A DNA stretch of 11,982 nt from Campylobacteraceae bacterium (GTDB lineage Bacteria > Campylobacterota > Campylobacteria > Campylobacterales > Sulfurovaceae), in assembly GCA_027056615.1 (NCBI GenBank), contig JALUKJ010000150.1, positions 1-11,982 of the forward strand, read 5' to 3'. Positions 1-1,714 of this stretch are shown in pieces. Numbering within the stretch: position 1 is the stretch's first letter; the number at the start of each line of letters is the position of its first letter. A program made the translations under genes and the position numbers. The notes beneath the pieces are model-generated. The model ran no database searches and had not been told where the DNA came from. It saw nothing but the letters and a program-made list of their open reading frames with translations.

Positions 1-550
1 CTTTAACCTCTAAAACGCTATTGGTTATAATCTTATATTTATAGTTATCTCCTATGCACATTGCATCATAATAGTGTTCTTTTGGCAGAGCAACCTCTTT
101 TCTATTAAAATAAGTTTCCCACCCCTCGCCTGTAGTTACTTCAAAATATTTTGCTAATTCTTTTAGTGTATAGGTTCTAGCACGAGGTAACCAACTATTA
201 GGTCTTACTCTATTATCAAATCTTGCTTCTCTATATCTTGTTTTTCTATTTCGTCTACCTCTTCTTATTGCTCTTCTTGAATCTATTGCTTTTTTAACAG
301 CTTTTCCTCTATGTAGTATTTCTGCAAAGAAGAAACATTTTACAGCATCAACAATAGCCATGCCTGTGACTGATGCACCTACATCAAACTTTATTTCAAA
401 GCTTTTTGTACCAACTTTGTTTTCTTTTAATCTTATGGTAAAAAGAAATATTTTATGCACAACAGCTTTACCTTTTTTTAGTAAAATTCTAGCCTTAGCT
501 TTAGTTGTTGGAGCTAAGGGGGTTTTAGTTTTATCTAATACAAAAACCAT
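1..550 (-). CDS. iscB: IscB-family OMEGA protein with internal deletion (3' end off window)
   Basis: 183 codons are visible, reading from an ATG at 550 down to the window edge. An AGGA ribosome site lies 9 nt before that ATG. Residues 1-41 form the PLMP/RRXRR-type head (TPLAPTTKAKARILLKKGKAV). RuvC-I is at about 51-68 with Asp56 (FDVGASVTG). The Arg-rich bridge helix is at about 89-114 (RRAIRRGRRNRKTRYREARF), followed by RPNSWLP at 116-122. In IscB proteins this motif is followed by RuvC-II and an HNH domain. Here the next residues (RTYTLKE, 125-131) match the segment just before RuvC-III, and RuvC-III follows with LPKEH and His159/Asp162. So RuvC-II (its catalytic Glu) and HNH are missing, roughly 150-250 residues by family recall, with no frameshift or stop. 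About 80-100 C-terminal residues should lie outside the window. Family identity is strong. Whether this is a decayed copy or a retained nuclease-dead form is open. Confidence 0.87.
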   Translation of the reverse strand, partial: MVFVLDKTKTPLAPTTKAKARILLKKGKAVVHKIFLFTIRLKENKVGTKSFEIKFDVGASVTGMAIVDAVKCFFFAEILHRGKAVKKAIDSRRAIRRGRRNRKTRYREARFDNRVRPNSWLPRARTYTLKELAKYFEVTTGEGWETYFNRKEVALPKEHYYDAMCIGDNYKYKIITNSVLEVK

Positions 551-559
551 TTTTAAAAA

Positions 560-824
560 TCCTTTTTCAGATTAGCTCACTTTTCAGTGGTAACGGGCTT
601 TCGCCTCTCTCCTCGACAATGATAAAAATGCTTGTTCGCAATGGCGAATCGTCCTTAGGTTCACAGGGCTTTAACCCAACTTAAAGAGCCTACACAGAGC
701 TTGGAACTGGAGAAGCATTCCAAGGTGTGATAACACTGTTATCGTAGTTGGCTATTTCTAGCTACTCAGTCTGGTCAATCAAGCCTCTTCCATAACCTTT
801 AAGGTTTGGGAGAGGTTATTGACC
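560..824 (-). ncRNA. omegaRNA / HEARO RNA of the IscB element
   Basis: The space directly 5' of the iscB-like ATG is more G+C-rich than other spacers here and is full of short hairpins, as expected of the HEARO/omegaRNA that precedes iscB. Visible stems (plus coordinates) are: a 7-bp closing stem 773-779/818-824 with further pairing inside; GCTA/TAGC 751-754/759-762, whose loop reads GAAA in the RNA; GATAAC/GTTATC 729-734/738-743; CTTGGAA/TTCCAAG 700-706/718-724; TTCGC/GCGAA 635-639/644-648; and CACT/AGTG 578-581/586-589 with a GAAA loop. The block reading GGGTTAAAGCCC then TGTGAACC on the minus strand resembles the conserved HEARO core from memory. All stems look undamaged, so the RNA may still fold even though the protein is shortened. 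Exact 5' and 3' ends are estimates. Confidence 0.82.
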
Positions 825-840
825 TTAATGACTCTCCTAT
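825..840 (-). other. Candidate omegaRNA guide (left-end flank)
   Basis: In IscB systems the guide is the 5' end of the omegaRNA and is taken from host DNA just outside the transposon's left end. The closing stem of the RNA ends at 824, so the next 16 nt on the minus strand (ATAGGAGAGTCATTAA) are the predicted guide. This rests on the family rule and on my placement of the stem. The boundary could be off by several bases. Confidence 0.4.
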
Positions 841-877
841 AAATGAATTATGTTATTATTCCATTTTAATATATAAT

Positions 878-883
878 AGAGGA
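878..883 (+). promoter_or_regulatory. Ribosome binding site selecting a TTG start
   Basis: AGAGGA sits 6 nt before the TTG at 890. No ATG in that frame would leave an intact signal peptide, so this site supports TTG initiation. A TATAAT at 872-877 is too close to the start to act as -10 for an mRNA containing this site. TATTAT at 854-859 is a more plausible -10, though no convincing -35 is visible. Confidence 0.6.
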
Positions 884-889
884 TAAAAT

Positions 890-1714
890 TTGAAAAAATT
901 ATTTTTAATACTTCTTTTTACAGCTATTGGCTTTGCAAAAGTCAACATAGTAGTTAGTATTGTACCCCAAAAGGTTTTTGTCAATAAAATTGGTGGAGAT
1001 AAAGTAGATATTACCGTTATGGTTAAAAATGGAGCTTCTCCTCATAACTACACACCTAAACCCCAACAAATGAAAAAACTAAGCAAGGCAAAACTTTATC
1101 TCTCAATAGGTGTAGAGTTTGAAAAAGTATGGCTTAGTAAATTTATAAACCAAAACAGAGATATGCTTGTGGTTGATAGTTCTATGGATATAAACAAAAC
1201 AACTCTACATCATCATAACGAAGAGGAACTTGACCCTCATGTATGGGTTGACCCTATAAATGTCAAAGTAATTGCTCAAAATATCTATGAAGCTTTAGTA
1301 GAAATAGACAAAGAAAATAAGAGCTACTATAAAAAGAACCTAGAGAACTTTCTAAAAGAGATAGATAAAATTAACCAAAATATTAAAAATACTTTAAAAA
1401 ATACTCCAAAAGGGACAACCTTTATGGTTTTTCACCCTGCTTGGGGCTACTTTGCTAAACGTTACAATTTAAAACAACTTTCCGTTGAAGTAGAGGGAAA
1501 ATCTCCTAAGATGAAAGCTTTAGTAAAGATTATAGAAAAAGCAAAAAAAGAGAAAGTTCAAGCCATATTTACCCAACCTGAATTTTCAGATAAAGCTTCA
1601 CAAATTATATCCAAAGAGCTTCATATCAATGTTATAAAAGCCTCACCTTTAGCTGAAAATTGGGGTGAAAATCTGCAAAACTTAGCCAAAGCTATTGCCC
1701 ATAGAGAGCCTTAA
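890..1714 (+). CDS. znuA: Periplasmic zinc/manganese-binding protein of an ABC importer (ZnuA-like)
   Basis: Captures a divalent metal, most likely Zn(II) or Mn(II), in the periplasm and hands it to the permease encoded two genes downstream. The 274-residue protein starts at a TTG and has a signal peptide (MKKLFLILLFTAIGFA, likely cut after Ala16). Family metal-ligand positions are visible: His52 (ASPHNY), His117 (DPHVWVDP), His182 (FHPAWGYF), and the acidic region around Glu231-Asp234 (TQPEFSD). A short His/acid loop (HHHNEEE, 107-113) sits where ZnuA proteins carry their longer His-rich loop. The C-terminal SPLAENWGENL block is typical of cluster A-I (TroA-like) binding proteins. It is followed by the ATPase after 1 nt, so the three genes form one operon. 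The metal cannot be settled from sequence; the His-rich loop favours zinc. Confidence 0.9.
   Translation: MKKLFLILLFTAIGFAKVNIVVSIVPQKVFVNKIGGDKVDITVMVKNGASPHNYTPKPQQMKKLSKAKLYLSIGVEFEKVWLSKFINQNRDMLVVDSSMDINKTTLHHHNEEELDPHVWVDPINVKVIAQNIYEALVEIDKENKSYYKKNLENFLKEIDKINQNIKNTLKNTPKGTTFMVFHPAWGYFAKRYNLKQLSVEVEGKSPKMKALVKIIEKAKKEKVQAIFTQPEFSDKASQIISKELHINVIKASPLAENWGENLQNLAKAIAHREP

What the first reader, a model, noticed from the sequence alone, without database searches (positions are those of the whole stretch)
1..550. IscB-like protein missing exactly RuvC-II and HNH, in frame
Head domain, RuvC-I, bridge helix and RuvC-III all align to IscB, but the sequence jumps from the RPxxWLP motif (residues 116-122) to the segment before RuvC-III (RTYTLKE, 125-131). 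The frame stays open and the catalytic Asp56, His159 and Asp162 are kept, while the RuvC-II Glu and the whole HNH are gone. Known relatives are IscB (both domains), IsrB (RuvC without HNH) and IshB (HNH without RuvC); none that I know has this layout. It could be a non-cutting, RNA-guided DNA binder, comparable in idea to nuclease-dead TnpB repressors, or simply an early decay product.
Basis: partly seen in the sequence, partly recalled or inferred. Interest (0 to 1): 0.75.

Follow-up and report, generated by a model that had tools for sequence, protein, structure and literature searches.

The report
Internally deleted IscB transposon copy
One copy of a bacterial mobile element has lost, without breaking the reading frame, the middle of its RNA-guided DNA-cutting protein (both cutting centres), while fuller sister copies sit elsewhere in the same genome; it is most likely a recent decay product rather than a new kind of DNA-binding protein.

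Summary
The minus-strand ORF (window 550 to beyond 1) is an IscB that keeps the RRXRR head, RuvC-I Asp56, bridge helix and RuvC-III His159/Asp162, but lacks RuvC-II and HNH. The same genome holds fuller, 88-92% identical copies (C180, C81, C250). Against them the window copy has one 423-bp in-frame deletion without microhomology, so an assembly collapse is unlikely. "Exactly RuvC-II and HNH" is too strong: flanking linkers went too. The HEARO (omega) RNA at 601-823 is complete. The contig stops inside the gene; both candidate continuations (C205 by synteny, C232 by exact overlap) have an open C-terminus. The junction was found in no other genome searched. Three otherwise invariant N-terminal residues are changed, no more than in some sisters. 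The guide has no second target in the genome. A sister species has an independent in-frame HNH loss. Best reading: a single, recent, nuclease-dead internal-deletion derivative that could still be moved in trans. A selected RNA-guided binder is not excluded, but nothing specific supports it. Side finding: right ends of these elements sit at ATGA start codons and carry their own Shine-Dalgarno.

The parts
2..550 (-). iscB with internal in-frame deletion; start codon at 550, runs off the contig at 1
183..184 (-). deletion junction TTACCTC|GTGCTAG; 423 bp missing against C180/C81/C250, 0 bp microhomology (measured on C250)
383..385 (-). RuvC-I Asp56 codon
65..76 (-). RuvC-III H159-Y-Y-D162 codons
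601..823 (-). HEARO (omega) RNA, RF02033, 88 bits, complete model 1-211
   Evidence: compared with other copies
824..840 (-). inferred guide segment: element flank directly 5' of the HEARO RNA, the old leader (with Shine-Dalgarno AGGAGAG) of the displaced host gene
   Evidence: its role as guide is inferred from the known IscB/HEARO design (PMC9755519 passages)
868..896 (-). weak sigma-70-like promoter that could drive guide, omega RNA and iscB
   Evidence: 9 of 12 matches; 2 sites found against a mean of 0.9 in shuffles, so not evidence by itself

Best explanation
It is one copy of a multi-copy HEARO/IscB mobile element, in a bacterium whose same-genus relatives are named Sulfurovum or Campylobacteraceae, that suffered a 423-bp in-frame internal deletion in iscB. 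The protein would keep the omega-RNA-contacting head and bridge helix and, through the neighbouring contig, the TAM-binding C-terminus (about 280 residues in all). It lacks the RuvC-II strand with its catalytic Glu and the whole HNH, so it should cut neither strand and probably does not fold as a normal RuvC. The visible element end and the omega RNA are intact, so the copy could still be moved by a transposase acting in trans while being unable to defend its site by cleavage. Shown here: layout, deletion, complete RNA, fuller sister copies, singleton status in what was searched. Inferred: loss of cleavage, misfolding, passive persistence, mobilisation in trans, the C-terminus.
For: Fuller copies in the same genome: C180 (complete but for its very end), C81 and C250 (cut at the N-terminal side). 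Exact 423-bp gap. Junction found only in the window copy: pattern in 1 of 100 genomes, the window's own; in 34 genus genomes, 5 with a match, no other copy matches across the junction (contig-cut copies and fragments cannot be judged); 0 matches of the degenerate pattern in viral contigs; exact junction in 7 of 147 loci, all of them this contig. HEARO RNA complete at 88 bits; the five same-genome copies scanned score 87.2, 87.1, 82.2 and, contig-cut, 66.7 and 66.2. Three residues invariant in all other copies are changed (C47G, V64M, G119S). Other deleted or fragmentary copies exist in the genus.
Against: The frame is open and no stop or frameshift is present in what is visible. The private residues are not clearly more than in copies without this deletion (3 of 80 N-terminal columns, against 2 of 79 in C180 and 3 of 80 in each of two G016 copies). 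In-frame deletions in iscB recur in the genus (3 of 4 events; chance of 3 or more about 0.11 if each has 1/3, hand calculation).
Confidence: 0.76

Rival explanations
1. A selected nuclease-dead IscB: the short protein binds its omega RNA and DNA without cutting, acting as an RNA-guided repressor (like TldR among TnpB relatives, recalled) or as a competitor of the full-length copies.
For: Open frame, complete HEARO RNA, head and bridge helix retained, C-terminal part open in both candidate contigs. In-frame HNH loss also seen independently in G017:C67.
Against: No second copy of the junction found. Guide plus ATGA matches nowhere else in the genome within 3 mismatches; its only hit is its own flank without TAM. 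Strictly private changes are all non-synonymous, though few. RuvC-II is a core strand, so the fold is doubtful (inference; structure prediction failed).
Confidence: 0.08
2. An assembly or chimera artefact: the middle of iscB was lost when repeats were assembled, and the organism carries only full-length copies.
For: Genome in 467 contigs, probably a MAG; the window ends inside the gene; bases 1-127 are identical to the start of C232, whereas the syntenic partner C205 differs by 1 of 86 bases, so this end of the contig lies in a multi-copy tangle.
Against: The junction has 0 bp shared sequence on either side, so a k-mer or overlap join should not make it, and a scaffold gap would normally show as N. 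The contig also has a private base four codons before the junction (G119S).
Confidence: 0.1
3. A step in re-evolution of a RuvC-only (IsrB-like) form from IscB by HNH loss, with the window copy as an over-long version.
For: G017:C67 lost 279 bp with HNH but kept the RuvC-II Glu, the Asp and His/Asp of RuvC-I and III, an open 327-aa frame and a 98.7-bit HEARO RNA.
Against: The window copy lost the RuvC-II Glu as well, so it is not an IsrB; G017:C67 is also the only copy of its kind seen in the 34 genus genomes.
Confidence: 0.06

Closest known systems
IscB / HEARO ORF (OMEGA RNA-guided nuclease; PF14239, NF040563, RF02033)
   Same: Head, RuvC-I, bridge helix, RuvC-III, upstream HEARO RNA, multi-copy element; 90-93% identical to sister C180 over shared parts
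   Different: No RuvC-II, no HNH; below the NF040563 cut-off (167.5 against 175 bits)
IsrB (RuvC without HNH; PMC9581776, passages read)
   Same: Lacks HNH; small; same RNA-guided element type
   Different: IsrB keeps all three RuvC motifs and a short HNH linker; here RuvC-II is gone and the sequence is an IscB
TldR, nuclease-dead TnpB repressors (recalled, no call)
   Same: Mobile-element RNA-guided protein without a complete catalytic centre
   Different: TldR are conserved families with retargeted guides (recalled); here a singleton with a self-derived guide
Internally deleted, non-autonomous IS copies (general knowledge)
   Same: Deletion inside the coding part, fuller copies in the same genome
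   Different: The deletion happens to keep the frame

Membership tests
IscB | RRXRR/PLMP head and RuvC-I Asp | tested here: met
   PF14239 E 3.5e-42; Asp56 invariant
IscB | RuvC-II Glu | tested here: not met
   C180 Glu151 lies in the deleted segment
IscB | HNH domain between RuvC-II and RuvC-III | tested here: not met
   Profile positions 126-271 missing; alignment
IscB | RuvC-III His/Asp and C-terminal TAM-interacting domain | tested here: inconclusive
   His159/Asp162 present; the C-terminus lies beyond the contig, open to the stop in both candidate contigs
IscB | Upstream HEARO/omega RNA | tested here: met
   RF02033, 88 bits, gathering score 83
IscB | RNA-guided cleavage | not testable with these tools
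   needs a bench assay
IsrB | Three RuvC motifs without HNH | tested here: not met
   RuvC-II absent
TldR-like RNA-guided repressor | Conserved dead form in several genomes | tested here: not met
   junction pattern in 1 of 100 genomes, the window's own; 0 in viral contigs; a form with a different junction outside this family could be missed
TldR-like RNA-guided repressor | Guide directed at another genomic site next to a TAM | tested here: not met
   no such site within 3 mismatches of a 19-base pattern (15 bases of guide + ATGA) in the own genome; genome 94.5% complete, TAM assumed
IS200/IS605-type element | Encoded Y1 transposase in the element | tested here: inconclusive
   one Y1_Tnp match in the genome, at the edge of C224, none in this contig; [quoted passage not shown]

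The most novel reading that the evidence does not exclude
The short IscB is a working, non-cutting omega-RNA-guided DNA binder, produced from the promoter of the gene in front of which the element sits, that marks or represses empty target sites or interferes with the full-length IscB copies of the same cell; a natural dead IscB made by removing the whole catalytic middle.
Probability: 0.07. Interest if true: 0.75.

Novelty: new member of a known kind. Interest (0 to 1): 0.3.

Why it matters
As a single internal-deletion copy it is ordinary for mobile elements. It would matter if the short form bound DNA: it would be a natural guided binder of roughly 280 residues without complete nuclease centres and a parallel to dead TnpB repressors. 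The genus is also a useful natural series: full IscB, an HNH-less copy with all RuvC residues (G017:C67) and this copy without RuvC-II and HNH, which makes the order in which domains can be lost testable.

Tried and rejected
Structure prediction of the window protein and of C180 as control, each with an 8-sequence alignment, both failed (mean pLDDT 31.8 and 33.3). With the intact control equally poor, nothing can be said about the fold, and no fold search was run.

Plasmid and phage hits that seemed to run through the junction: five that I fetched and compared by tblastn (L069, L071, L072, L073, L074) are 5 of 5 continuous matches to nearly the whole C180 protein, i.e. full-length IscBs; a sixth, L070, was fetched and not compared, but its record lists the same protein accession as L069. 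H6 and H57 of that group were not fetched. Of the 17 loci, eight belong to genus genomes already seen; of the nine others L058, L059 and L060 were compared with C180 and span the middle, L061-L066 were tested only for the exact junction. The two viral contigs (L067, L068) also span the middle.

A two-step deletion through a CCTC repeat in the HNH coding part was considered as an origin of the junction; it would also stay in frame. This was read from the alignment by eye; nothing decides between it and one blunt deletion.

C232 was first taken as the continuation because of a 127-base exact overlap. Synteny in G026, G010 and G006 (a small divergent MKKLTLREYA gene next to znuA) and the same gene at the element end in C205 make C205 the likely partner despite 1 mismatch in 86. 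No uvrA was found beside znuA in the flanks held for the 30 loci; those flanks are about 1.5 kb or less.

Selection tests: the counts of private changes are too small for a test (a base shared with any other sequence, such as those giving L36 and N118, was not counted), and the number of private residues does not set the window copy apart.

NF040563 across the order: 119 of 398 genomes have some match, 3 of 398 are over the cut-off (G000, G016, G429); most other listed matches cover only the HNH part, and the list is cut. It showed no second RuvC-II-less form. The genus genomes G017, G019 and G027 do not appear among the matches of that call.

Full report
What was checked. The window is a whole contig (G000:C150, 11,982 bases) of a 467-contig, 94.5% complete genome. 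The finding lies on the minus strand: ORF 550..2, 183 codons, running off the contig end.

The protein. It matches RRXRR (PF14239, E 3.5e-42, residues 2-123) and IscB (NF040563, 167.5 bits, just under the 175-bit cut-off). The same genome holds longer IscB copies: C180 (427-aa open frame), C81 (394) and C250 (351), the last two cut by contig ends at the N-terminal side. Alignment shows one gap of 423 bp in the window copy, junction TTACCTC|GTGCTAG, with 0 bp of microhomology on either side when measured on C250. Missing are C180 residues 123-263: the helix after RPxxWLP, RuvC-II with Glu151, HNH, and the linker to RuvC-III. Asp56, His159 and Asp162 remain and are invariant in 8 aligned sequences.

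Beyond the contig. Two contigs can follow. C232 shares an exact 127-base overlap and leads to uvrA; C205 overlaps by 86 bases with one mismatch. In the three relatives closest by znuA (G026, G010, G006; 85, 83 and 83% identity) a small divergent gene, MKKLTLREYA..., lies next to znuA, and that gene is at the element end in C205. The empty site in G026 reads GGAGAGTAATTAAG-ATG, matching the window flank on one side and C205 on the other. C205 is therefore the likely partner. In both contigs the C-terminal part is open to the same stop. The repeat tangle at the contig end keeps an artefact possible, but a zero-overlap junction is not what k-mer collapse should produce.

The RNA. A complete HEARO RNA lies at 601-823 minus, 88 bits. 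The other copies scanned in the same genome score 87.2 (slightly cut), 87.1 and 82.2 bits, and two contig-cut ones 66.7 and 66.2; copies in three other genomes score 79.7 to 98.7 bits. The flank just outside, the expected guide, followed by ATGA, occurs nowhere else in the genome within 3 mismatches; the only hit is the flank itself, where the TAM is displaced by the element.

Is the short form conserved or selected? A degenerate junction pattern hits 1 of 100 genomes, the window's own, and no viral contig. The exact junction is in 7 of 147 loci, all of them stretches of this contig. The protein search over 34 genus genomes finds matches in 5; only the window copy matches across the junction, while contig-cut copies and fragments cannot be judged. 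Strictly private changes in the window copy are 4 non-synonymous (one created by the junction) and 0 synonymous; in C180 8 and 6, C81 7 and 2, C250 2 and 3, C232 2 and 1, C205 0 and 1. At N-terminal columns where all others agree, the window differs at 3 of 80 (C47G, V64M, G119S), C180 at 2 of 79, each of two G016 copies at 3 of 80, the others at 0 to 2. This neither shows constraint nor sets the copy apart.

Other deletions in the genus. G017:C67 lost 279 bp that carry HNH but keeps the RuvC-II Glu and an open 327-aa frame. Two G016 copies share an in-frame loss of 30 alignment columns between HNH and RuvC-III, and one of them has Tyr at the HNH His. G019:C77 has an out-of-frame deletion near a masked stretch. 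So 3 of 4 events are in frame; with 1/3 each the chance of 3 or more is about 0.11 (hand calculation). Fragments also occur in G016:C83 and G019:C49. Deletion derivatives are thus a normal fate of this element.

Mechanism. With no RuvC-II Glu and no HNH, neither strand should be cut (established roles of these motifs). Whether the rest folds is open: AlphaFold failed for it and equally for the C180 control. I take the copy to be a passive deletion derivative whose RNA and visible end are still intact. Only one Y1 transposase match, at a contig edge, was found in the genome, so mobilisation in trans is inferred.

Literature. Passages, not whole texts, were read of PMC9581776 (IsrB lacks HNH and has a short HNH linker; DtIsrB showed an NTGA TAM preference, TTGA at 60 C, and cuts ATGA targets), PMC9755519 (HEARO ORFs are IscB; only a few were found with TnpA) and PMC13180657. 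Searches on IscB/IsrB with RuvC-II and HNH, nuclease-dead IscB, HNH deletion, truncated IscB, and IshB listed no paper that, by title and start of abstract, reports a natural IscB lacking RuvC-II and HNH; only open-licence papers are held, so this is weak. TldR is recalled.

Side finding. In this genome the nine intact right ends found read ...TTGGAGGTTTTTG followed at once by ATGA, and in 9 of 9 that ATG opens an ORF of at least 96 codons; 6 of the 9 have Pfam matches (UvrA, a flavoprotein, a redoxin, an M14 peptidase, a phosphoribosyltransferase, PdxJ) and 3 have none. A tenth, degenerate end (C215) also abuts ATGA but opens only 18 codons. Six of six ends in three other genomes, four of them with a somewhat different end sequence, also abut ATGA at the start of an ORF of 219 codons or more (for G017:C48 the script measured from a wrong match, corrected). 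In the window only 3 of 126 ATGA sites are starts of the 12 genes I took as real. The element thus sits directly before a start codon and brings its own GGAGG; at the window's site the displaced leader keeps the old Shine-Dalgarno. One of 6 left ends in this genome lies inside an ORF (C180); the other five were not tested by translation, so this is not a strict rule. ATGA fits the known TAM type; insertion of HEARO elements at ATGA/GTGA is recalled from the original HEARO description, not seen here, and searches with HEARO plus ATGA, start codon or Shine-Dalgarno gave nothing on it in their listings.

Noticed in passing
element right ends in G000: C232 (L013:464-490), C205, C81, C250, C248, C3, C145, C214, C210: The 9 intact right ends found abut an ATGA that opens a host-like ORF (9 of 9, at least 96 codons) and carry a Shine-Dalgarno (TTGGAGG) placed for that ATG; at the window's site the left flank is the host leader with its own Shine-Dalgarno, which becomes the guide. 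Looks like start-codon-targeted, translation-sparing insertion; 1 of 6 left ends lies inside an ORF.
   Followed up: partly
L050:3001-3981 (G017:C67): IscB of a sister species with an independent 279-bp in-frame loss of HNH but all RuvC catalytic residues kept: an IsrB-like layout newly made from IscB.
   Followed up: partly
L051:497-1669 and L053:3001-4170 (G016): Two IscB copies share an in-frame loss of 30 alignment columns between HNH and RuvC-III; one has Tyr at the HNH His.
   Followed up: no
window 1-127 against C232 and C205: The contig end is identical to C232 over 127 bases although synteny points to C205 (1 mismatch in 86): a repeat tangle in the assembly.
   Followed up: partly
L105:2389-2679, L106:2387-2677, L107:2422-2712, L015:397-687: Small conserved 96-aa gene (MKKLTLREYA...) divergent from znuA, no Pfam match for the C205 copy; it is the gene in front of which the window's element most likely sits.
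   Followed up: no
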